Source of the DNA: Candidatus Gastranaerophilales bacterium | GTDB taxonomy: Bacteria; Cyanobacteriota; Vampirovibrionia; Gastranaerophilales; Gastranaerophilaceae | Assembly (NCBI GenBank): GCA_944324435.1 | Contig: CALUWH010000018.1 | Span: forward strand, 1 to 41,696 | DNA: 41,696 bases | Reading direction: 5' to 3' | In this document: positions 1 through 41,696 of the stretch, in pieces | Layout of the letters: every line of letters starts with the position of its first letter | Numbering within the stretch: position 1 is the first letter of the stretch | The notes under the pieces: generated by a model | Told to the model about the DNA's origin: nothing | Databases searched by the model: none | Seen by the model: the letters and a program-made list of their open reading frames with translations, nothing else | Position numbers and translations under genes: made by a program

Positions 1-1
1 T

Positions 2-1726
2 GTACAGTTTATGGTAATCACAAAGGGTGCTGAACGTATCGCAGAAGTTGCAGCTCGTTTTGCATTGGATGCTATGCCCGGTAAACAAATGACTATTGAC
101 GCGGACTTTAACGCAGGACTGATTTCTCCGGAAGAGGCTGTAAAAAGACGTGAAGATTTGCAGAGAGAATCAAGCCTCTTCGGTTCTATGGACGGTTCTA
201 TGAAGTTCGTAAAAGGTGATACTATTGCAGGTATCATCATTGTATTAATAAACATTATAGGCGGTTTAGCAATCGGATGTCTTGTAAACCAGATGCCAAT
301 TGCAGATGCCGTCAGTAAGTATACTGTATTAACAATAGGTGACGGTTTAGCCTCACAGCTTCCGTCTCTTTTGATGTCAATTGCAGCCGGTATCGTAATG
401 ACACGTGCTTCTGCAGGTAATACTTCATTGGGCGGTGACTTAACTAACCAGATTCTATCCAAACCGTATTCACTGTTTTTTGCAGCGCTGTTTTTGGGCT
501 TAATCACGGTAACTTCTCCAATAACAGGACTTCCGTTCCTGCCGTTCTTAATGTTTACAATAATCCTTGCAATAGCAGGCTTCTCTGTATTAGTTAATGC
601 AGACGTCCAGTCTCAATTGGGACAATTGGAAAGCGTACGTCAGAATATGCAGGATTTGGTTAACCCGAATAAGATGTACGAAAGACTTGGTGTTGACGTT
701 TTAAGTTTACAAGTCGGTGCAGGCCTGCTTGTTATTGCAGACCCTGATCAGGAAGGTCAATTACTCGCAAAAATCGCAGCTCTCCGTCAGAGAGTTACGG
801 ACGAGTTGGGTTATATTATCCCGAATATCCGTATCATGGACTCATCTGCCCTTGAGGCCAATGAGTATGTAATTTCTATACGTAATAATGTTGTTGCATC
901 AGGATACGTTTATCCGGGTAAATATATGGTTATTGCAGACCAGTGGGATTCTGTTAAGAAAACGATTCCGGAAGATGCTATTGTCGGTGTTGATCCTACG
1001 TACCAAACTCAAGCTTATTGGATATCTGCAGAGGATGCTAAATCCGCGAAGAGTGTAACTGCAGTTGACGCAACTGATGTTCTTGTTACACACCTGCAGG
1101 AATGCGTAAGAAAACACGTTGATGAAGTAATGACAAAAACAGATGTGCTCAAGCTTATGGAACTTGTCCGTTCACAAGACCCGACGCTGGTCAATGACCT
1201 TGTTCCTGCAATTATTTCAACATCAGATTTACGTAAGATTTTTGTTAACCTGATTAGAGAAAAGGTCTCCATCAAAGATATCATATTTGTATTTGAGCGT
1301 CTTTGTGATTACGCAAGATTCTCAAAAGAACCTGACATCTTATCAGAACGTCTGCGTGCTGCATTAGGAAGACAAATTTGCTTGAACAACGTTGACAGAG
1401 ATAAAGTTCTATACGCACTAACACTTTCTCCTGAATGGGAAAAAACGCTTGATGACAGCTGTCAGAGAACTGAGCTTGGTACAATGTTCCTGCTTAATCC
1501 AATGCAAGTTCAGGATTTGATTGAATCAACCGCTATGACGCTTATGAGGGCGCATCAGGCTATTGGACAGCAGCCGGTTATATTATGTTCACCAAGAATC
1601 AGACTTCCACTTTACCAGCTGCTTGAACGTCATATCCCGACTATTGTTGTTATTTCATATTCCGAGTTAATCACGGATATAAAGGTCGAAGCGGTTGACA
1701 CTATTGGCGAAAACAGCGGATATTAA
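2..1726 (+). CDS. flhA: Flagellar/type III export gate protein FlhA, 5'-truncated by window edge
   Basis: The reading frame is open to the left edge, so about 110-120 N-terminal residues are missing and 574 remain. FlhA forms the nonameric export gate of the flagellar type III secretion apparatus in the inner membrane. The visible part starts in the conserved FHIPEP-family cytoplasmic loop (KGAERIAEVAARFALDAMPG, then QMTIDADFNAGLI), followed by MDGSMKFVKGD and about four membrane helices (residues ~75-200 of the fragment). After these comes the large cytosolic ring domain up to the C-terminus. The loop and the GDGLASQLPSLLMS stretch fit FlhA well; a non-flagellar SctV homologue cannot be excluded without the rest of the locus. 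No other canonical flagellar gene lies in the window. The next gene has its own promoter. Confidence 0.93.
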   Translation, partial: VQFMVITKGAERIAEVAARFALDAMPGKQMTIDADFNAGLISPEEAVKRREDLQRESSLFGSMDGSMKFVKGDTIAGIIIVLINIIGGLAIGCLVNQMPIADAVSKYTVLTIGDGLASQLPSLLMSIAAGIVMTRASAGNTSLGGDLTNQILSKPYSLFFAALFLGLITVTSPITGLPFLPFLMFTIILAIAGFSVLVNADVQSQLGQLESVRQNMQDLVNPNKMYERLGVDVLSLQVGAGLLVIADPDQEGQLLAKIAALRQRVTDELGYIIPNIRIMDSSALEANEYVISIRNNVVASGYVYPGKYMVIADQWDSVKKTIPEDAIVGVDPTYQTQAYWISAEDAKSAKSVTAVDATDVLVTHLQECVRKHVDEVMTKTDVLKLMELVRSQDPTLVNDLVPAIISTSDLRKIFVNLIREKVSIKDIIFVFERLCDYARFSKEPDILSERLRAALGRQICLNNVDRDKVLYALTLSPEWEKTLDDSCQRTELGTMFLLNPMQVQDLIESTAMTLMRAHQAIGQQPVILCSPRIRLPLYQLLERHIPTIVVISYSELITDIKVEAVDTIGENSGY

Positions 1727-3332: not shown

Positions 3333-3902
3333 ATGTCTAAAACTAAGTATAAAAAAGGGGATATATATACGCTTATAGTTTGTGCCCAAAAGGGCGATAT
3401 GAAAGCGCTTGAAGAACTTATCAGGCGTGTACAGAAAAACGTCTTTACTATGTTCAGCTATCTTACGAACAAAAGACAGGATATTGCCGATTTAACTCAG
3501 GAGGCCCTTCTAAAGATGGCGAGGGGGCTGCCAAGGTTGAAAGACCCGAAAAAGTTCAAACCCTGGCTCAACCAGATTGTCACAAATATTTTTTATGATT
3601 ACATAAAAAAGCATGCCGGAGACAAGCATTTGGACGTTGATAATAACAAACTTTTAGAAATTAAAGATAAAATCGGATGCGAGCCGGGAGAAAAATGTCT
3701 TTTTTCAGAGATGGAGAAGCTTATAAAAGCTGCACTTTTAAGTCTTCCTGAGAATCTGAGAATTGCAATAATTCTTAGGGAATACGAAGGGATGAGTTAT
3801 AATGACATCTCAAAAATTACCAATACAACGCTCGGAACCGTAAAATCCAGAATTTCACGAGCGCGGCTCAAACTGCAAGAAGAACTTATAGAATTTATTT
3901 AG
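3333..3902 (+). CDS. ECF-type RNA polymerase sigma factor
   Basis: This 189-aa protein has the two-domain layout of group 4 (ECF) sigma factors. Region 2 covers ~residues 22-92, with the core-binding and -10-recognition segment containing DIADLTQEALLKMARGLPRL and a KPWLNQIVTN motif. Region 4 covers ~135-187, with LPENLRIAIILREYEGMSYN and a helix-turn-helix ending KSRISRARLKL. Regions 1.1 and 3 are absent, as expected for this class. It is followed 11 bp later by a membrane anti-sigma factor, the usual arrangement for envelope-stress or signal-responsive regulation. AAAGGG precedes the ATG. Which promoters it reads is unknown. The orphan genes with shared upstream motifs are possible targets, but that is speculation. 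Confidence 0.93.
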   Translation: MSKTKYKKGDIYTLIVCAQKGDMKALEELIRRVQKNVFTMFSYLTNKRQDIADLTQEALLKMARGLPRLKDPKKFKPWLNQIVTNIFYDYIKKHAGDKHLDVDNNKLLEIKDKIGCEPGEKCLFSEMEKLIKAALLSLPENLRIAIILREYEGMSYNDISKITNTTLGTVKSRISRARLKLQEELIEFI

Positions 3903-3913
3903 GAGGAGTATTA

Positions 3914-4456
3914 ATGGAAATAACATGCGCTCAAATGGATGTATTATTGTCATTTTATATAGACGGCGACCTTAGCAGGGCGTTGAAGCTTAAAGTTGAA
4001 GAGCATTTGAAAAGATGTTCGGCCTGTCGTGCGAAATATGAGATTATTAAATCTATGCTAAACGACTTGAGAAGCTCTTTTGAGGATTCTGAGCAGGAAG
4101 AAATGGCAGGTAATGCAGTCTCCGGACAATATAAGGTATTTCAAAACAATCTCTCTGCATACGTTGATAATGAACTTAGTCCGGAAGAAAATGTGAAAAT
4201 TAAAAAATTTACCATAAATAACAAAAATGCGCGTAAAGATTTGGAAAACGCTTACAACATAAGAAAACTTATGTGCGATTCATTTAACAAAACCAAATCT
4301 GATGCAAGACACGATTTCTCTCGAAGTATTATGAAGCAGCTTGAACCGTCGGAAGATTACAGCTTTTCGTTTCATCCGGTCTTAAAAGTCGCAATAGCAT
4401 TTGTTATGACTGTACTGATTCTATCCGCAATTATTATTTTTTCACTTACTCTTTAA
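3914..4456 (+). CDS. Membrane anti-sigma factor with zinc-binding ZAS domain
   Basis: This 180-aa protein starts with a ZAS anti-sigma domain: C5 and then H31-x3-C35-x2-C38 (HLKRCSAC), the metal site that binds and holds an ECF sigma factor. Residues ~75-125 look like a second, degenerate copy of the same fold (LSAYVDNELSPEENVKIKKF), without the His/Cys ligands. Residues ~156-178 form a single membrane helix near the C-terminus, with almost nothing after it, so there is no large periplasmic sensor. The ribosome binding site AGGAGG overlaps the 3' end of the sigma gene, which indicates coupled expression. The last 4 bp overlap the convergent gene at 4453. Confidence 0.88.
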   Translation: MEITCAQMDVLLSFYIDGDLSRALKLKVEEHLKRCSACRAKYEIIKSMLNDLRSSFEDSEQEEMAGNAVSGQYKVFQNNLSAYVDNELSPEENVKIKKFTINNKNARKDLENAYNIRKLMCDSFNKTKSDARHDFSRSIMKQLEPSEDYSFSFHPVLKVAIAFVMTVLILSAIIIFSLTL

Positions 4457-13735: not shown

Positions 13736-15064
13736 TTATTTACTTGTTGTTTTAAAAATATTTGTATCAAATTCAAACTTTTTGAATATGTTTTCGGCAT
13801 CTGTATTAACAGGAGTTTCTTGTGATGCGTTGTCCTGATTCGGTTCGGTTGTTACAGGAGTTTCTTCTGCGCCCTCTGTCATTTCCGGAGGCAGCTCAGC
13901 TGCGTATTCAGTAACATAGGTCTGAAGCTGGTTGTTTGCCTCTGATACAACATCCCAAGAACCGATTGAAGTTATCATCGCATTTACGGTTGTATCATAT
14001 TGACCAACAAGTTCAGATGTACCGCCGACTACCTGTCCGATACCGTAAGCGAAATTAACAAATTCCGTCAAATAAGAGTTCATTGAACCAACTGATTGAG
14101 TTAATTTTCCTAAACCTTGGGTAGAACCTTGCATCAATGTAGCACCGGCATTGATTTTATCATTACCGCTCATGATATATTTTGCACCGGTTGAACCGGT
14201 TACTACAGAATGAATACCTGATGTCATTGCCTCACCTATTGCAATCTGGATTCCGCCTGCAGTATCTTTTGCAACTGATTCAGTGGCCATAAGCGTATTT
14301 TCTCCCTGAAGCTGCTGGGCCTTGCCAACATTTTCTTGAATGCTCAGGATACCTTGAGTAATAACTTCTGATGTTTGAGTCATAAGTTCAGAAATACTTG
14401 TAGAGGCACTTTCAACAACGGCGTTTTGTTCCTGAATCTGTTCCAGATAACCGTTTACTGTTGTTACAAGAGTATTGATTGCAGAAGTTGCGCTCAAAAT
14501 GTTCTTCAAAGCGGTCTGACGATCTTTAGAATTTGCATTGTCATCATTCAGAACTTTTTTATTATCTTCTATAATCTGTAATTGTTCATCCAACTGTTCC
14601 TGAACTTTTGCTACTTCTCCGCCGTCTTCGCCGCCAAGTTTTTGAATTTCAGCTAAAGCATCTTCAATCGTTTTTGTTCCGGCTTCGCATTGAGCAAAAA
14701 TGTCTTGAAGCTTAGAATTTATAGTCATTGATGTTTTCTGAGCTTGCGCATCGTTTTCCGCAATCTTTTTATCATTTTCTTTAACTCTTTGGTTAGCTTT
14801 TGCAGAATCTTTTGTGCCTAAGCTGGACAACAAATCAGTCAATTTATTTACAATATTGTTGACAGCATTTGCTTTTTGTGAATCATCACCATTAACAAGT
14901 TGTTCTGTACTTCCTGCCAAACCCCATACTGAATTAACATAAGAAGATGCACCATTGCTTCCGGCGGCATTTTGTCCGCCTTCGGTAGACCCTAAAAGCT
15001 GATTAAGCTGGTCTTGTGCCTGAGCTAAAAGATTTTGATAATTTACGCTTTCTAAAGGTGCCAT
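13736..15064 (-). CDS. Uncharacterised 442-aa coiled-coil protein
   Basis: I do not recognise a named family. There is no signal peptide. Residues ~1-30 are an amphipathic Gln/Leu helix (NYQNLLAQAQDQLNQLLG). Residues ~80-240 are heptad-rich coiled coil. Residues ~255-370 change to a Gly/Ser/Ala/Ile-rich segment (SGIHSVVTGSTGAKYIMSGN, NFAYGIGQVVGGTSELVG). The last 60 residues are Pro/Thr/Glu-rich and disordered, ending in FDTNIFKTTSK. A coiled coil followed by weakly hydrophobic glycine-rich helices recalls type III translocators of the IpaB kind in architecture only. The shared upstream element lies about 100 bp ahead of the start. AGGAAG precedes the ATG. Confidence 0.8.
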   Translation of the reverse strand: MAPLESVNYQNLLAQAQDQLNQLLGSTEGGQNAAGSNGASSYVNSVWGLAGSTEQLVNGDDSQKANAVNNIVNKLTDLLSSLGTKDSAKANQRVKENDKKIAENDAQAQKTSMTINSKLQDIFAQCEAGTKTIEDALAEIQKLGGEDGGEVAKVQEQLDEQLQIIEDNKKVLNDDNANSKDRQTALKNILSATSAINTLVTTVNGYLEQIQEQNAVVESASTSISELMTQTSEVITQGILSIQENVGKAQQLQGENTLMATESVAKDTAGGIQIAIGEAMTSGIHSVVTGSTGAKYIMSGNDKINAGATLMQGSTQGLGKLTQSVGSMNSYLTEFVNFAYGIGQVVGGTSELVGQYDTTVNAMITSIGSWDVVSEANNQLQTYVTEYAAELPPEMTEGAEETPVTTEPNQDNASQETPVNTDAENIFKKFEFDTNIFKTTSK

Positions 15065-19555: not shown

Positions 19556-21145
19556 ATGAGTATGAACTTTATTAAGAATAGTTGGCAGGTCATCGTAATA
19601 AATTTATTTATCCTTCTTGCATTTGTACTGGGATACGGAAGATTTGGCGATATTATAATAGATTCTTTCAGAGAAGCTTATATCCCTGCGCAGGTCGTAG
19701 AAGGTAAAATTTTGTATGAAAATATTTTTACTATATATGCGCCGTTTGCTTATATGTTTAACGCCTTGTTATTCAAAATCTTGGGGATAAATCTAAGTGT
19801 TTTATATTTTGCCGGATTAGCAGCTACTTTAGGGTTTTTAAATTTAATCTATTTGATATCTAATAAATTTATTGATAAGAATTTCTCACTCGCAGTTATT
19901 TTATTTACTATTGCAGGCTGCGTGCTCTCTCCAAATGTTTTTAATTTCTTTTTTCCGTATTCGTACGGAATGATATACGGGCTTTTATTTATCACTGCGA
20001 GTATTTATTTTGGTTTAGAAAAAAAATTCCCTCCGGCTTATTTGATGTACTCATTTGCCGTATGCTCAAAATATGAATTTGTATTCCTGCTTCCGCTTTT
20101 GATTTACGTAAATTACGGGTATTGGAAAAAGGATTGGCTGAAAAATATAATTTGCCTTATACTTCCGTTTATTCTTGTTTATACCCCTCTTTTACTACAG
20201 GGAGCCGAGCTTAGAAATCTGGCTGCTTCTCTGCAAATAGTTGCCGCTATGTCTACAGCCAAAACCCTGCGTTGGTTTTACTCTGTTACAGGCCTGATTT
20301 TTAGATGGGAATTGATTCCTGTCTATATTTTAAATATTGTAAAAATTGCCGTTCCGTTTTTTATTTTTGACAAATTTAAAACTTATTGGCTTCTGCCGGT
20401 TTTGCTTGTTTATCTTTATTTTACCGTAACTCCTGAAATTATTATCTTTGCGTTTCCTTTAATCCTTGTATTATTTGTTACAAGATACCGAAAACTTAAC
20501 GGTAACGAAAAATTTTTTATTCTTGCCTCAATTCTGATTTCAATAAAAGTGTTTTTTGCGCTGACCTTAAAGGCTTATGGAGTTTATTGCGTTCCGTTTG
20601 CAATGATTTCAATATATATACTAATGCCTCCAAAATACAAAAAAGCCCTTTTTGTAATGACTCTTTTGTCTGCATTAATACTTCTTTTTCAAAATACAAA
20701 AGAGCTTTCCTCCAAAAATGTAAAAATTGCAACAACAAGGGGGATTATCCGAACAACTCCATACTATGGAAATACTATTCGTGAATTTTTAAATTATATT
20801 CAAAAAAACACTTCAAAAAATGATACTGTTCTTGTTTATCCAGAAGGGCTTGCTGTCAATTTCTTATCAAACAGAGCTTCCGATAATAAGTTCTACTCTC
20901 TGATACCTCTATACGTTGAAACTTTCGGCGAAAATTTGATTATGGACAGATTATATATCAAGCAACACGAATATATAGCTATTACAAACTATGATACTTC
21001 GCTTTATTATTACTCAAAATTCGGTATTGACTATGCAGGTAGAATTATGGATTCTATCAAGACAGACTACACATTAGTAAAAACATTCGGTGATGATTTT
21101 AAAATCAGTCTTTATAGACTTAAACATCATCATCCTTCTCCATAG
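19556..21145 (+). CDS. GT-C-type membrane glycosyltransferase-like protein
   Basis: The 529-aa protein has 9-11 membrane helices spread over residues 8-385, followed by a soluble C-terminal domain (~390-525). The first extracytoplasmic loop reads GDIIIDSFREAYIPAQVVEG with KILYENIFTIYAPF. This matches the acidic Asp/Glu-containing loop of GT-C (PMT/ArnT/GT39- or GT87-like) enzymes that use polyprenyl-phosphate sugars on the outer face of the membrane. Acceptor and donor are unknown. The last 26 bp overlap the convergent membrane gene. No glycan-biosynthesis neighbours are visible. Confidence 0.82.
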   Translation: MSMNFIKNSWQVIVINLFILLAFVLGYGRFGDIIIDSFREAYIPAQVVEGKILYENIFTIYAPFAYMFNALLFKILGINLSVLYFAGLAATLGFLNLIYLISNKFIDKNFSLAVILFTIAGCVLSPNVFNFFFPYSYGMIYGLLFITASIYFGLEKKFPPAYLMYSFAVCSKYEFVFLLPLLIYVNYGYWKKDWLKNIICLILPFILVYTPLLLQGAELRNLAASLQIVAAMSTAKTLRWFYSVTGLIFRWELIPVYILNIVKIAVPFFIFDKFKTYWLLPVLLVYLYFTVTPEIIIFAFPLILVLFVTRYRKLNGNEKFFILASILISIKVFFALTLKAYGVYCVPFAMISIYILMPPKYKKALFVMTLLSALILLFQNTKELSSKNVKIATTRGIIRTTPYYGNTIREFLNYIQKNTSKNDTVLVYPEGLAVNFLSNRASDNKFYSLIPLYVETFGENLIMDRLYIKQHEYIAITNYDTSLYYYSKFGIDYAGRIMDSIKTDYTLVKTFGDDFKISLYRLKHHHPSP

Positions 21146-22136
21146 CGCGTTTGATAATATTTCTGTCTAATTTCTTACTTCCGTATTTCTTATTAGATTC
21201 TTCCATAAGTTTTTCACTGGGTCTTCTATTTCTTGTTTTCTTCTCTGTTTTTTCTGTTTGTATATTCAATTCTTTGTACCAAATAGCCCATAAAATTGAC
21301 CTCATAGGAAGGGTATACTGAATCAAAATTTGAGCAGCAAAGGTTTCAATAGTGAATCGAGCTATATCAAAATCAGAAATTGGTTTAGCACCTGATGCAG
21401 TGATTAAATTATTCAGTGCGTCTGTAGGAAGCTCTTTTACAAGCGGCAAGATGACATTTACAAGTAAGTTATTTATGCCTGTAATTTCAAATATTTTTAA
21501 GAAAACCTGTGGAATAAAGACATAAGTCAGCACTCCTGCAAGCGCCATAAGCATAAATGTTGAAGCAAAATGTCCTTTAACAAGAAGCAGACTTCTTTTT
21601 ACACATCTTAGCGGTGAAAGTTCCGGCTCGTATGTAAAAACCTGAAAAACCAGTACAAAATAAACCGCTAAAATAGCGCATATTATCCAAAAAAGCGGAC
21701 AAACGGCAAATATAGAAAATATACCAAATAAAAACCAAAGTCCGATAAATGATAACGTCCTTCTTTTTATTAATTCGGTATGGGCATTAAAATCATAAAC
21801 TTTTCCTGATTTGAGCATATTATCAACCATCGAGTTAATTGCACCATAAGCGACAAGGTATTCCCAAAAGGCTTTTACAAAAATAATCAGTCCCGGCAAT
21901 GTTATAATCAGGGAGATTAAAATTAATGAGAGAAAATTGTTCAAAACCGGAAATTTGATGATAAGAGCCGGTAAGTTTCTTGTGTAAAAAAATGTTATCA
22001 AAAATACCAACGCAAGACCGGCAATCTGCCCGAGTACAGGAAAAGACATGTACTGAACAAATTTACTGAAGTTTGAGAAATAAAGTCCGATTGATTCTAT
22101 GAAAAGACCCAAAGGTGTTTGTGTTTTTTTTGCCAT
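21120..22136 (-). CDS. Six-helix integral membrane protein, uncharacterised
   Basis: I do not recognise this 338-aa protein. It has about six hydrophobic segments (residues ~31-50, 66-95, 127-165 as a pair, 190-215 and ~265-285). The C-terminus is long and strongly basic/acidic and cytosolic (KKTRNRRPSEKLMEE ... EKDDDV). The overall style resembles glycerophosphoryl-type or DUF4013-like membrane proteins that assemble envelope lipids, but no diagnostic motif is visible. GGAG precedes the ATG. It is convergent with the GT-C gene (26 bp overlap) and divergent from the PHP gene, with only 51 bp between their starts. Confidence 0.82.
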   Translation of the reverse strand: MAKKTQTPLGLFIESIGLYFSNFSKFVQYMSFPVLGQIAGLALVFLITFFYTRNLPALIIKFPVLNNFLSLILISLIITLPGLIIFVKAFWEYLVAYGAINSMVDNMLKSGKVYDFNAHTELIKRRTLSFIGLWFLFGIFSIFAVCPLFWIICAILAVYFVLVFQVFTYEPELSPLRCVKRSLLLVKGHFASTFMLMALAGVLTYVFIPQVFLKIFEITGINNLLVNVILPLVKELPTDALNNLITASGAKPISDFDIARFTIETFAAQILIQYTLPMRSILWAIWYKELNIQTEKTEKKTRNRRPSEKLMEESNKKYGSKKLDRNIIKRAMEKDDDV

Positions 22137-28511: not shown

Positions 28512-28835
28512 TTATTTGTCTATACTTTCAGAATCATTTTGTATTTCTTTATTTTCCCTTAAATCCTCAACGACCTCTACTGCTGTATAAAAATCGACCA
28601 CTTTTTGATACAGTTTCGGACAGGCAGTTTTAATTTTATCAAGGAAGTTAGTCCTTTCCTGACCGGTAAGCTCTCCATCGGGTTTTTCCTCACCATTAGT
28701 GTTCTCAACGTCACATTCGCTGAAAATTGTGTTAATTTTGGCAGTGTCTTTGGAGTTTAACTTAACACCGTTATCACGAAAAAATTTATTCATGCCTTCA
28801 AGGTTCATTTTTAAATCACCATAATCTAAACTCAT
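28512..28835 (-). CDS. Uncharacterised 107-aa acidic protein with EF-hand-like segment
   Basis: I do not recognise this small, acidic, helical protein without signal peptide or membrane segment. Residues ~34-68 (INTIFSECDVENTNGEEKPD then GELTGQERTNFLDKI) resemble helix-loop-helix of an EF-hand. The second half of the loop is good (PDGELTGQE), but the first half has an insertion. Calcium binding is therefore only possible. Two Cys (41 and 72) are present. AGGAG precedes the ATG. A diverged copy of the shared upstream element plus TTTGTAAC/CTTTACAAA half-sites lies ~45-105 bp ahead. Confidence 0.75.
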   Translation of the reverse strand: MSLDYGDLKMNLEGMNKFFRDNGVKLNSKDTAKINTIFSECDVENTNGEEKPDGELTGQERTNFLDKIKTACPKLYQKVVDFYTAVEVVEDLRENKEIQNDSESIDK

Positions 28836-28921
28836 AATATTATCTCCTGTATTTTTACAACCAAGTTAATTAACGGCATATTAAAAAAAAACTTTAGTTT
28901 TTGTAAAGAATTTGTTACAAA

Positions 28922-32070: not shown

Positions 32071-33963
32071 ATGACAGATGAATTAGCAATTCAAGCGGTA
32101 AACCCACAGGTAAAACGCAAAGACAACACAATGCCTTATGCATTAGGAGGAGCAGCTATTGGTGCTGTAGCCGGCGGTTTATCTCCGATTGGGGTTACCA
32201 AACCAAAATACTCTTCTTATGAAGATATTTTGAAAGAATCAAATGATACTTTGGAAAAAAATATCAACAAGGGCGGAGACAACAAGAGCTTTTGGGAAAC
32301 GGCAAAACAGCATAAAGAAGCTGTAGACAAAGCCGGCGAAGAGTGGGAAGCTAAGGTTAAAGAAATCAAAGAATCCCACAAAACAGCTGCAGGAGAACTC
32401 CCTGCCGATAATGAAGCTGCTAAAAAATTAAAATCAGCACAAGAAGCTTATGACAATGAGTTAAAAAATCTTGTTGAAACTGAAAAGAAAAAATTAGGAA
32501 GAGGCACTGTAGCGGATATTACAACAAAAGATATCAAAGCCTTTGATAAGATTACAACAGAACAGTTGCCGACAGAATACGCTTTTGGAAAACTAAAAGG
32601 CAAAAAGATCCCGGGTAATCAAGTAGAAGCCTTGTATAATACATTGACAAGCAACTTACGTAATGCTGAAGCTTCTCTTGAAGCAACTCTGAATGCAGGC
32701 TTGAGAGCAGATAAGGCCAATTATTCGACTAAGATTGCGCAGAGTTTTAATGCCGCAATCCACGATACCGCAGGAATGTCTGATGACAAAGTGGTAGAAT
32801 ATTTTAATAATAAAACTACCTGGTCAATTCTGGGCGGTTCAAAACCGACTGCTCAATATCAAAGAGCTATTGATGTTGCAAAACAATATTATCCTGATAT
32901 TACAAAATTATCAGATGAACAAATACTTTCAATTGGCAGAGACTTAAATCCGGGCGAAAAAGTGTCATCAGGTATGAAGACAATTGTCGTAACGGTTAAA
33001 GATGCTGCTACCGGACGTAATGTAACAAAGACAGTAATTTTTGAAGAAAAAGCTTATGATGAGCTGCTAAAAGCTGAAAAAGAGCGTATTGCAAATTTAA
33101 GAACAAAAGCCGCAGATCAGATTTTTGTTGAAACACAAAAAGCAGTTGCAATAGATAGAGAACTCAAAGCTTTTGACGGAACTTTCGAAAAAAGTATTAA
33201 GGGTAATCTAGCGCAACAGACAGGTTTATATAATACTGCCACTGATACATTGGATTTAGCTAAGATTAAGACTGAAGGTGCTCTCGGTTATGCTGATGAC
33301 ATCAAGGCATTGGAGGCGGCTAAAAAGGCAGGAAGTACCACTCTACCGGCAGGCTTGAAAGGAAACTACGGCACTGCAACAGTAGAAGAAGCTTTGACAC
33401 AAGCTCAGGCAAGACAAAGTGTTTATAAGAATTATACAAGACAACATAAGGCTATAGAAGACCGATTAGCAAATTGTGTAAGAAATAACGCGATTATACA
33501 GGAATTTGATAACAAGATAGATGATGCGATTGCTAATGATAAAGCTGTTCTCAGAGCAAGACAACAATTAGCTGAACAATTCCCTGGTGTCTATAGCGCT
33601 AAATCAACACTTTCTGCTGATGAAATTGCAACAAAAGCAGAAGAAGCAGCTAAAAAAGCGATTGAAGGTAAAAAAGCCGCAACAGACTTAAAAGCGGCAA
33701 AAGAAGCGGCTGAAAAAGAAGCTGAGAAATTAGGTCTCAAGGCTAAGGATTTGACTCAGGAAGAATTAGAAAAAATCCTTAAAGATAAAGGTCTAGCTGT
33801 TAATAAAGAAGAAGCTCTTGCTAAAACTAAGACTGCAGCTAAAGAAGCTCTTGAAAAAGACTTGAGCAAAATCAAGGGACCAAACAGATGGGTCAACGCA
33901 GCTATCGCAGCTGTAGTCCTCGGGCTTGGCGGATACGCTTTAGCTTCTTCCAAGAAAAGCTAA
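32071..33963 (+). CDS. Uncharacterised 630-aa helical protein with hydrophobic segments at both ends
   Basis: The family is not recognised. Residues ~22-42 (MPYALGGAAIGAVAGGLSPI) and ~606-625 (WVNAAIAAVVLGLGGYALAS, then SKKS) are weakly hydrophobic Gly/Ala-rich segments. Between them lies ~560 residues of Lys/Ala/Glu-rich helix, probably elongated coiled coil, with a tail very rich in AAKEA/EALAK. There is no standard signal peptide. The layout would suit a protein spanning or tethering two membranes, or an exported rod that inserts by its ends; both are inference. AGGAG precedes the ATG. Copy 2 of the shared element lies 218 bp upstream, and a strong terminator follows. Confidence 0.82.
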   Translation: MTDELAIQAVNPQVKRKDNTMPYALGGAAIGAVAGGLSPIGVTKPKYSSYEDILKESNDTLEKNINKGGDNKSFWETAKQHKEAVDKAGEEWEAKVKEIKESHKTAAGELPADNEAAKKLKSAQEAYDNELKNLVETEKKKLGRGTVADITTKDIKAFDKITTEQLPTEYAFGKLKGKKIPGNQVEALYNTLTSNLRNAEASLEATLNAGLRADKANYSTKIAQSFNAAIHDTAGMSDDKVVEYFNNKTTWSILGGSKPTAQYQRAIDVAKQYYPDITKLSDEQILSIGRDLNPGEKVSSGMKTIVVTVKDAATGRNVTKTVIFEEKAYDELLKAEKERIANLRTKAADQIFVETQKAVAIDRELKAFDGTFEKSIKGNLAQQTGLYNTATDTLDLAKIKTEGALGYADDIKALEAAKKAGSTTLPAGLKGNYGTATVEEALTQAQARQSVYKNYTRQHKAIEDRLANCVRNNAIIQEFDNKIDDAIANDKAVLRARQQLAEQFPGVYSAKSTLSADEIATKAEEAAKKAIEGKKAATDLKAAKEAAEKEAEKLGLKAKDLTQEELEKILKDKGLAVNKEEALAKTKTAAKEALEKDLSKIKGPNRWVNAAIAAVVLGLGGYALASSKKS

Positions 33964-39807: not shown

Positions 39808-41313
39808 TTATGTGAATATGCTGAAGCTGCGTTCAATATTGTCATCTCTTACAGATTCTATACTTTTAATCATTTCATTAATTGATGATTGTTCTGTTTT
39901 TAGGTCTTCCATTTTTAAATCAATACGACTTTCTTTTTCATCAATAATTCCTTTTTCGTATTCATATTCAGCCAATGCTTTATTTTGAGCGCTGGAATCG
40001 TTGACGGAGTAAATTTTATTAAAGTTAGAAGCAATACTGCTTGAATATTCGTAATATTCTTCTCCGTCCTTATCTGTTGAACTTTCCATGGTAGTTATAT
40101 AATACTGATTGTTTTGTAACATTTGGTTCAAATAATCCGTATCTGAAACATCAGCGTTATACACCCATCCTTTTTCTGCAATTGCGGTAAATAATTGATC
40201 ATAAAATGCAATGGCAGATTCTTCTGCGGAAGTTAAGCTTTGATTGTCCGTATCTACCGAGGAAGAATATTCGGATTTAGCAGCTTGTAATTCTGCATAT
40301 TTAGCTTCATAAGCCTGATAAGCTTCAGACTCTCTGTCTACTGTTTCGTAGTAATATATATCTGTGCTGACTGAACTCTGTTCACAATGTCCTCCTGCGC
40401 TCCTGTATTGCTCAAGCAGGCATTCAATAAAATCATTAACCCCTATGCAATAGTTACCGCTGTTATTAGTCTGTTCTATGGACAACGGGCAGGTATGTGC
40501 ACAGTCAACACCAGCGGCATCGATATAATCGCTGTAAATTTGATAAGTAGCGTCTGCAGCTTCATTAAAGGCTTGAAGGTCATCATCTTTTAGATATTGT
40601 GATACGTTTGTAGTGATTTGGTCGAGGAGTTCTTGCAAACGGGTCTTTGAATCAGCCGAATTAGTAGATAAGCGCCACTGTACTGATTGGTCGTCAAGAT
40701 CGTCAATAAAATCGTCGTAAATATTGCTTTCGCCGGTTTCTGTAGAACTGTAATTAAATCCTGAAACACTTCCAAAGCATTCTTTTATAAAGTCTGTATC
40801 AGAGTATTCTTCTGTGCATGCGGCTTCCAGTTCGTCAACCTCTTCCTGCAGAGTGTTTACATTCTCTGCGGAGGTCTCTACATTAGCACTTGTTGTTTGT
40901 GCACCTTCAATCTTTTCAGCAGAAATACCTGTCAGTTCTGACAGAATCGAGGTTCTGTTCGATTCATAGTCTCCGCCGGCTTTTCCTTCCGCTGAAATCA
41001 TCTCTGCATACTTTTGATATTGGCTATCTACAACAACACGGCCGCTTGAATTTGTAAGCAAATACGGCGTGTTTTGGTTGGCATCACTAGGACGCATTAA
41101 CGTAGCATAACTCAGGTCTACATAACTTACCCCCGAATTATTAGACCATTTGAATATCTTCGTGTTGAGAGCGTTCTGGTAATTCTTTGAGACCTTATTC
41201 ATCTCACGGGTCAAAGACATTTTTTGCAATGACAGGCTGGAAAGCTGCCGCCCGATGTCATTTTTTCGGCCGGTAAGCTGCAATAGTCTAACTTGTGACG
41301 CTGCCATTCCCAT
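39808..41313 (-). CDS. 501-aa protein with conserved-looking helical ends and variable core
   Basis: There is no named family I can assign. The N-terminal ~50 residues (MGMAASQVRLLQLTGRKNDI ...) are a Gln/Ser/Leu-rich amphipathic helix without a signal peptide. The C-terminal ~50 residues form a matching coiled coil (DEKESRIDLKMEDLKTEQSS ... ERSFSIF). Paired helical ends around a Ser/Thr/Asn/Tyr-rich core are the plan of flagellin/hook-associated axial proteins exported through FlhA-type gates; sequence homology to them is not evident. The core has clustered Cys (ACTEE, ECFGS, DCAHTC, YCIG, ECLLE, HCEQ). Copy 3 of the shared element lies ~161 bp upstream. Confidence 0.82.
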   Translation of the reverse strand: MGMAASQVRLLQLTGRKNDIGRQLSSLSLQKMSLTREMNKVSKNYQNALNTKIFKWSNNSGVSYVDLSYATLMRPSDANQNTPYLLTNSSGRVVVDSQYQKYAEMISAEGKAGGDYESNRTSILSELTGISAEKIEGAQTTSANVETSAENVNTLQEEVDELEAACTEEYSDTDFIKECFGSVSGFNYSSTETGESNIYDDFIDDLDDQSVQWRLSTNSADSKTRLQELLDQITTNVSQYLKDDDLQAFNEAADATYQIYSDYIDAAGVDCAHTCPLSIEQTNNSGNYCIGVNDFIECLLEQYRSAGGHCEQSSVSTDIYYYETVDRESEAYQAYEAKYAELQAAKSEYSSSVDTDNQSLTSAEESAIAFYDQLFTAIAEKGWVYNADVSDTDYLNQMLQNNQYYITTMESSTDKDGEEYYEYSSSIASNFNKIYSVNDSSAQNKALAEYEYEKGIIDEKESRIDLKMEDLKTEQSSINEMIKSIESVRDDNIERSFSIFT

Positions 41314-41474
41314 AATGTGATCCGCTTTCCTTTATATTTTTTTCCCTTTTACTATGTATTACGGTATAATTGGGATAAATCTTTAATATTTTAGCGAAAT
41401 TGTTACAAATCTTTACAAGATTTCCCCCAAAATTGTTACATTTATTAACCAAATTGTTACTTTTCTTAATAAAA

Positions 41475-41514: not shown

Positions 41515-41696
41515 GTTGGTTTAGAAGTTGAGGGGATGTTTTAGGGTTGAACAGTTGAACAGTTGAAAAGTTGAAAAGTAGTTTTAGGGTTTAGAGGTTG
41601 AGTAGTTTATAAGTTTAGGAGAAGTTATAAAGGGTTGATAAGTTGAATAGTTGAAGGGTTAAATAGTAGTTTTTGGTTTAGGAGTTGAGGAGTTTA
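41515..41696 (+). repeat. C-depleted degenerate AGTTGA repeat tract
   Basis: About 180 bases with only two C residues on the plus strand, built from variants of AGTTGAA/GTTGAACA/GTTTAGG. The tract starts right after shared-element copy 3 and runs out of the window. Confidence 0.7.

What the first reader, a model, noticed from the sequence alone, without database searches (positions are those of the whole stretch)
39808..41313. Flagellin-like architecture in a protein of unknown family
Both ends are amphipathic helices/coiled coils with no signal peptide, and the core is Ser/Thr/Asn/Tyr-rich with at least six Cys clustered in the middle. Axial proteins exported by flagellar or type III systems have this plan, and an FlhA homologue is encoded in the same window. 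The Cys-rich core is unusual for flagellin and suggests disulphide or metal stabilisation outside the cell.
Basis: inference. Interest (0 to 1): 0.6.

Follow-up and report, generated by a model that had tools for sequence, protein, structure and literature searches.

The report
Flagellar-regulated hairpin protein, variable core
A gut relative of cyanobacteria carries a large, undescribed protein family with conserved helical ends and fast-changing middles, with flagellum-type promoters even in species without flagellin; its members are probably building blocks or cargo of a flagellum-like export machine, which would explain why these bacteria keep such a machine.

Summary
The ORF at 39808-41313 (-) is real: 501 aa in a Gastranaerophilales genome, with a 48-residue N-terminal helix, a 61-residue C-terminal helix, no signal peptide, a variable S/T/N/Y-rich core and 7 Cys. 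A model pairs the terminal helices as an antiparallel coiled coil.

It is not a recognisable flagellin: no Pfam or NCBIfam family matches above cut-off, and this genome has true flagellins. It belongs to an unnamed family ("MGxAASQ" hairpins) with conserved ends and cores from nothing (109 aa) to about 900 aa. The genome has seven members; all 192 genomes of the order that were searched have one. The Cys are not conserved, so the disulphide/metal idea is not supported.

Two findings favour a flagellar-type role. In Gastranaerophilaceae, family genes carry sigma-28-like promoters (78 of 130 against 7 of 555 control ORFs), also in flagellin-less genomes, though the window copy is a weak match. 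And a second flagellar-type apparatus (FlhA2, FliP2, FliE/F/H, rod proteins; no hook found) persists where flagellin and canonical FlhA are lost.

Best reading: a late substrate (secreted or axial subunit) of that apparatus. Export, and which apparatus does it, are inferred.

The parts
39808..41313 (-). MGxAASQ-family protein, 501 aa: N- and C-terminal helices with a variable core
41167..41310 (-). N-terminal helix, residues 2-49 (MGMAASQVRLLQLTGRK...); 73% mean identity to orthologues
40324..40983 (-). variable core, residues 111-330; 26% mean identity to orthologues
40384..40503 (-). residues 271-310 with five of the seven Cys; not conserved
39814..39996 (-). C-terminal helix, residues 440-500 (...DNIERSFSIFT); 61% mean identity to orthologues
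41358..41385 (-). sigma-28-like promoter TAAAGATT-N12-ACCGTAAT, at the place of the better matches of the orthologues; weak in this copy (11 of 16)
2..1726 (+). FlhA of the second flagellar-type apparatus (FlhA2), 5' end missing at the contig edge (N-terminal part on contig C11)

Best explanation
The protein is a member of an undescribed family of helical hairpins whose two ends zip into an antiparallel coiled coil, with a fast-evolving domain inserted at the tip. It is probably made as a late gene under a sigma-28-type (FliA/WhiG) sigma factor, kept unfolded or chaperoned in the cytoplasm, and exported without a cleaved signal through a flagellar-type type III apparatus; outside, the hairpin would pack as a rod/filament-like or tip subunit (or stay a soluble secreted protein) and the variable core would face the gut environment. 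The most likely exporter is the second apparatus (FlhA2/FliP2 with FliE, FliF, FliH, FlgB/C/F/G-like rod, no hook found), because it is the one kept by the flagellin-less relatives that still have the family. Shown: family, hairpin model, core variability, promoter motif, two sets of export genes, co-occurrence with FlhA. Inferred: which sigma factor acts, export, which apparatus, assembly and function outside.
For: Family profile in 191 of 192 genomes of the order at E<=1e-5, the last (G048) with short members at E=5.6e-4. Outside the order, in families f9, f14, f15, the same family is a bare ~109-aa hairpin in several copies (profile-profile 98.1%, E=8.7e-14); so long members are hairpins with inserts, as in flagellin D0/D1 plus D2/D3. 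Orthologue identity: ends 61-73%, core 26%. Terminal helices pair in both models. Sigma-28-like promoters (>=13 of 16 with TAAA and CCG): 37 of 52 family genes of this genus against 5 of 157 controls, 41 of 78 other Gastranaerophilaceae against 2 of 398, 0 of 3020 shuffles, median 41 and 53 nt before the start. Flagellin-less genomes keep >=12 of 16 (L157/L224 of G060, L226, L229, L231, L232), and G060 has a FliA/WhiG sigma (248 bits, cut-off 189.6) 4 kb from its rod genes. Canonical FlhA (>=817 bits) in 70 of 192 genomes, all of which have flagellin; flagellin in 74; the second FlhA in nearly all. Apparatus 2 genes confirmed in the window's genome and in G060. All 161 family-positive genomes of the class sample have FlhA; 0 of 54 FlhA-negative genomes have the family.
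Against: No secretion or localisation data. Family genes are scattered and not in the export operons. Co-occurrence with FlhA rests on few independent lineages, and FlhA-positive families f10-f12 lack the family. The window copy's own promoter scores only 11 of 16, and three of the genome's seven members lack a good one. Most flagellin genes looked at lack the motif within 130 nt, so its identity as sigma-28 rests on the consensus, not on this organism's flagellins. The short members outside the order show no such promoter (1 of 19). The flagellin overlap (Z about 9) is not above generic coiled coils.
Confidence: 0.55

Rival explanations
1. A cytoplasmic or polar coiled-coil scaffold (or a chaperone-like partner) that belongs to the motility/chemotaxis regulon but is never exported; the variable core binds other cell proteins.
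For: Antiparallel coiled coils that score highest structurally include chemoreceptor cytoplasmic domains, SMC and dynein stalks; sigma-28 regulons also contain cytoplasmic proteins (established knowledge); genes are not linked to export operons; short members have the size of flagellar chaperones.
Against: Inserts from 0 to about 900 aa at the hairpin tip with 26% core identity against 61-73% at the ends look like surface-exposed variation; no conserved partner domain; retained in all genomes of the order in many copies.
Confidence: 0.25
2. A minor component of the ordinary flagellum of this genome (filament, cap or hook-associated-type protein) exported by the canonical apparatus.
For: The genome has canonical FlhA, FliP, hook-size proteins and seven Flagellin_N matches; one flagellin gene has the same promoter type.
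Against: The family and its promoters are kept in genomes with no flagellin, no canonical FlhA and no hook-size protein.
Confidence: 0.12
3. A substrate of another signal-less route (type VII/WXG100-like hairpin or type I secretion).
For: Signal-less helical hairpins with variable domains are also the plan of type VII substrates (established knowledge).
Against: No Pfam WXG100/LXG match; diderm organism; the promoter type points to the flagellar regulon. The exporters of these routes were not searched.
Confidence: 0.05

Closest known systems
Bacterial flagellin (FliC/Hag) and hook-associated proteins
   Same: Conserved N- and C-terminal helices that pack antiparallel, hypervariable middle, no cleaved signal, sigma-28-type promoters; conserved ends/variable middle described for flagellins in PMC7018530. 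The paralogue model overlaps flagellin D1 helices (104-112 residues, 1.6-2.6 A, Z 8.5-9.4).
   Different: No Flagellin_N/C match, no profile-profile similarity to this order's flagellins; exists as bare 109-aa hairpins; present where flagellin is absent; starts MGxAASQ.
Type III needle subunit SctF (related to FliC/FlgL according to PMC3459982)
   Same: Short helical hairpin, no signal, exported axial subunit; size near the 109-aa members.
   Different: No SctF match; no secretin or needle genes were looked for; long members have inserts of hundreds of residues. SctF not compared structurally here.
Retained flagellar basal bodies of Buchnera (PMC8109811)
   Same: Basal body and export genes kept without flagellin; a role in export has been proposed.
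   Different: Here it is a second apparatus that coexists with a full flagellum in flagellated relatives, no hook-size protein was found, and a candidate substrate family exists.
Partial flagellar gene sets of gut Melainabacteria (Di Rienzi 2013 PMC3787301, Soo 2014 PMC4040986)
   Same: Same organisms; MEL.A1 reported to lack filament, cap, junction and L/P rings; two flhA genes in the shared gene list.
   Different: Those papers read the partial sets as loss of a flagellum; here they fit a separate, universally kept second apparatus. The MGxAASQ family is not described in the passages read.

Membership tests
Bacterial flagellin (FliC) | Match to Flagellin_N (PF00669) and Flagellin_C (PF00700) or detectable homology to flagellins | tested here: not met
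   No flagellin model at E<=1; hhalign against eight flagellins of these genomes 0.1-0.6% probability. The genome's true flagellins are other genes.
Bacterial flagellin (FliC) | Terminal helices pack as antiparallel coiled coil | tested here: met
   Models and alignments; not specific, since many unrelated coiled coils score as high.
Bacterial flagellin (FliC) | Conserved ends, hypervariable middle | tested here: met
   Ends 61-73%, core 26% mean identity to 25 orthologues.
Bacterial flagellin (FliC) | Polymerises into a filament outside the cell | not testable with these tools
   Needs purified protein or microscopy.
Substrate of a flagellar-type type III export apparatus | No cleavable N-terminal signal or TM segment | tested here: met
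   Hydropathy profile.
Substrate of a flagellar-type type III export apparatus | Late-class (sigma-28) promoter | tested here: met
   Enriched for the family within Gastranaerophilaceae; weak in the window copy (11 of 16) and absent from the short members outside the order.
Substrate of a flagellar-type type III export apparatus | Occurs only with the export apparatus | tested here: inconclusive
   161 of 161 family-positive genomes have FlhA and 0 of 54 FlhA-negative genomes have the family, but few independent lineages.
Substrate of a flagellar-type type III export apparatus | Genetic linkage to export or rod genes | tested here: not met
   Seven members on six contigs, none within the export/rod operons seen.
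Substrate of a flagellar-type type III export apparatus | Export that depends on FlhA/FliP | not testable with these tools
   Needs a cultured or surrogate host.
Type III needle subunit (SctF) | Match to the needle family | tested here: inconclusive
   No Pfam match for 501-aa or 109-aa members, but such short families are easily missed; no structural comparison of a bare hairpin was made.

The most novel reading that the evidence does not exclude
Gastranaerophilales carry a second, hookless flagellum-derived machine, separate from the swimming flagellum and kept after the flagellum is lost, and the MGxAASQ hairpins (from a bare 109-aa form to about 1000 aa) are the subunits of a new kind of surface appendage or secretome that it exports under sigma-28 control.
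Probability: 0.3. Interest if true: 0.85.

Novelty: new variant of a known kind. Interest (0 to 1): 0.62.

Why it matters
Gut Melainabacteria keep flagellar export genes without flagellin, and this has been read as decay. A universally kept second apparatus plus a large, rapidly varying, sigma-28-type regulated family of candidate substrates makes another reading testable: a flagellum-derived secretion or adhesion organelle in common animal-gut bacteria. The series from bare 109-aa hairpins to hairpins with inserts of hundreds of residues would also show how axial-type proteins gain surface domains.

Tried and rejected
Flagellin membership: no profile match. Rod or FliE relationship: hhalign 0.1-0.3%. 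Known solved structures by sequence: only generic coiled coils. Fold search: no Foldseek match at E<=0.001 for either model; VIA-align rows are generic coiled coils, with flagellins among them at Z about 9. Weak Pfam hits HrpF (E=0.0013) and DUF4407 (0.0069) are below their cut-offs and cover core or coiled-coil stretches. Disulphide/metal core: Cys not conserved. Common promoter of all flagellins: not found within 130 nt in most. Literature: no paper holds both Gastranaerophilales and FlhA; none found that describes a type III system in this group. A phylogeny of FlhA1/FlhA2 was not built.

Full report
What is there. The window is contig C18 of a 1.95-Mb genome (98.9% complete) whose relatives in named records are Candidatus Gastranaerophilales MAGs. 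The finding is a 501-aa ORF on the minus strand, 50 bp upstream of ffh/SRP54. It has full-length relatives at 37-64% identity in more than twenty genomes of the same genus, so it is a gene.

Architecture. The AlphaFold2 model (30 aligned sequences, mean pLDDT 82.8, pTM 0.52) has a first helix 2-49, a last helix 440-500 and mixed alpha/beta between. VIA-align rows that span 1..501 align 104-114 residues to antiparallel two-helix coiled coils at 1.5-2.7 A, which means that the two ends pair. A 374-aa relative gives the same layout, and its paired ends overlap flagellin D1 helices at Z about 9, but not better than SMC, dynein-stalk or chemoreceptor coils. There is no hydrophobic signal or TM segment, and the net charge is about -50. 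Cys count is 7, but conservation of each is 1-7 of 26 sequences and the number per sequence is 0-8; the Cys part of the reading is therefore not supported.

Family. The single sequence finds two paralogues in its own genome with matching ends. A 30-row profile (A1) finds seven members there: C18 (this one), C9, C19, C26, C14 and two on C5, one of which is only 110 aa. In the order, 191 of 192 genomes match at E<=1e-5 and the last, G048, has short members at E=5.6e-4. In other families of the class (f9, f14, f15) all members seen are bare hairpins of about 109 aa, several per genome. Long and short profiles align with 98.1% probability and E=8.7e-14. Members reach about 1000 aa. Between orthologues the ends are 61-73% identical and the core 26%. 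No Pfam or NCBIfam family is matched above cut-off.

Not a flagellin. Flagellin_N rings seven times elsewhere in this genome, not here, and profile comparison with flagellins, rod proteins and FliE of these genomes gives 0.1-0.6% probability.

Two flagellar-type machines. FHIPEP finds two full FlhA types and a third, about 495-aa protein that has only the cytoplasmic part of FlhA. The canonical type (817 bits or more) is in 70 of 192 genomes by my count of the listed rows, all among the 74 with flagellin. The second type (about 700-736 bits; below the NCBIfam equivalog cut-offs of both FlhA and SctV but closer to FlhA) is in nearly all genomes of the order; the window begins inside it. FliP follows: two copies in flagellated genomes, one (the second type) in six flagellin-less genomes. 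Around the second type in flagellin-less G060 lie FliE, FliF, an unmatched FliG-sized protein and FliH; elsewhere a FliN-like protein, FlgB, FlgC and two FlgF/G-like rod proteins, and a FliA/WhiG sigma. The window's genome has the same set on contigs C11/C18, C25 and C38. In six flagellin-less genomes the rod/hook C-terminal domain occurs only in proteins of about 150 and 240 aa, and never in one of hook size. FlhB, FliI and outer rings were not searched.

Promoters. Upstream of family genes lies TAAAGTTT-N11/12-GCCGATAA or close to it, the textbook FliA/sigma-28 consensus (established knowledge). With at least 13 of 16 matches and both cores, 37 of 52 family genes of this genus and 41 of 78 of other Gastranaerophilaceae have it, against 5 of 157 and 2 of 398 other ORFs of the same loci, and 0 of 3020 shuffled upstreams; the median distance to the start is 41 and 53 nt. 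These genes are related, so the p-values (1e-23, 6e-35) overstate the independent evidence; still, the paralogues are old. Flagellin-less genomes keep it (G060, G066, G062, G100, G178). The window copy has TAAAGATT-N12-ACCGTAAT at 41358-41385 (-), aligned in place with better sites of its orthologues but only 11 of 16. One of this genome's flagellins has a comparable site, two others and most of the flagellins looked at in relatives do not, and the short members outside the order do not. That the sigma factor is FliA is therefore an inference from the consensus.

Co-occurrence. In 240 genomes of the class, all 161 with the family have FlhA, and none of the 54 without FlhA has the family. But 25 FlhA-positive genomes (mainly f10, f11, f12) lack it even at E<=10 where tested. 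By lineage this is three or four events, so it is consistent rather than decisive.

Mechanism. The plan (paired terminal helices, tip insert of any size, no signal, late-type promoter) is that of proteins which pass a flagellar-type channel unfolded and then pack outside by their helices, the insert facing out. Since flagellin-less genomes keep family, promoters and the second apparatus together, I assign it to that apparatus. Export, chaperones, assembly and outside function are inferred. A cytoplasmic role in the same regulon is the main rival.

Known context. Di Rienzi et al. (PMC3787301) and Soo et al. (PMC4040986) reported partial flagellar gene sets in gut Melainabacteria and took them as loss. 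Buchnera keeps basal bodies without flagellin (PMC8109811). Abby and Rocha (PMC3459982) derive non-flagellar type III systems from the flagellum and relate SctF to FliC/FlgL. In the searches made, no paper describes this family or the second apparatus, but the library holds only open papers.

Verdict. Observation confirmed; interpretation partly supported. An ordinary flagellin it is not; a member of a new family of candidate flagellar-type export substrates it probably is.

Noticed in passing
G000:C5:48672-49709 (L155:5646-7127, -): A 494-aa protein with only the cytoplasmic domain of FlhA (FHIPEP positions 321-655) and a new N-terminal part; present in nearly all genomes of the order that were looked at.
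   Followed up: partly
28869-28896 (-) and 28515-28835 (-): A near-perfect sigma-28-like site (TAAAGTTT-N11-GCCGTTAA) 34 nt upstream of a 107-aa ORF of no known family.
   Followed up: partly
L156:9401-10261 (own C5), L163, L165/L196, L178/L192: A 287-314-aa protein (MSYKND...ETYDRLRDLT...) lies next to a family member in this genome and in three genomes of family f9; a conserved two-gene pair of unknown function.
   Followed up: partly
L156:8405-8734 (own C5): A 110-aa bare hairpin member in the window's own genome, E=2.3e-3 to the long-form profile.
   Followed up: yes
1-1726: The contig begins inside FlhA2; its N-terminal part ends contig C11, so C11 and C18 adjoin in the genome.
   Followed up: yes
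41525-41655: Imperfect 43-bp tandem repeat (GTTGAA-rich) at the contig end, upstream of the gene; probably why the assembly breaks here.
   Followed up: no
3333-4456: ECF sigma factor and zinc-finger anti-sigma pair downstream of FlhA2.
   Followed up: no
13736-15064, 19556-21145, 21120-22136, 32071-33963: Four long ORFs with no Pfam match at E<=0.001.
   Followed up: no
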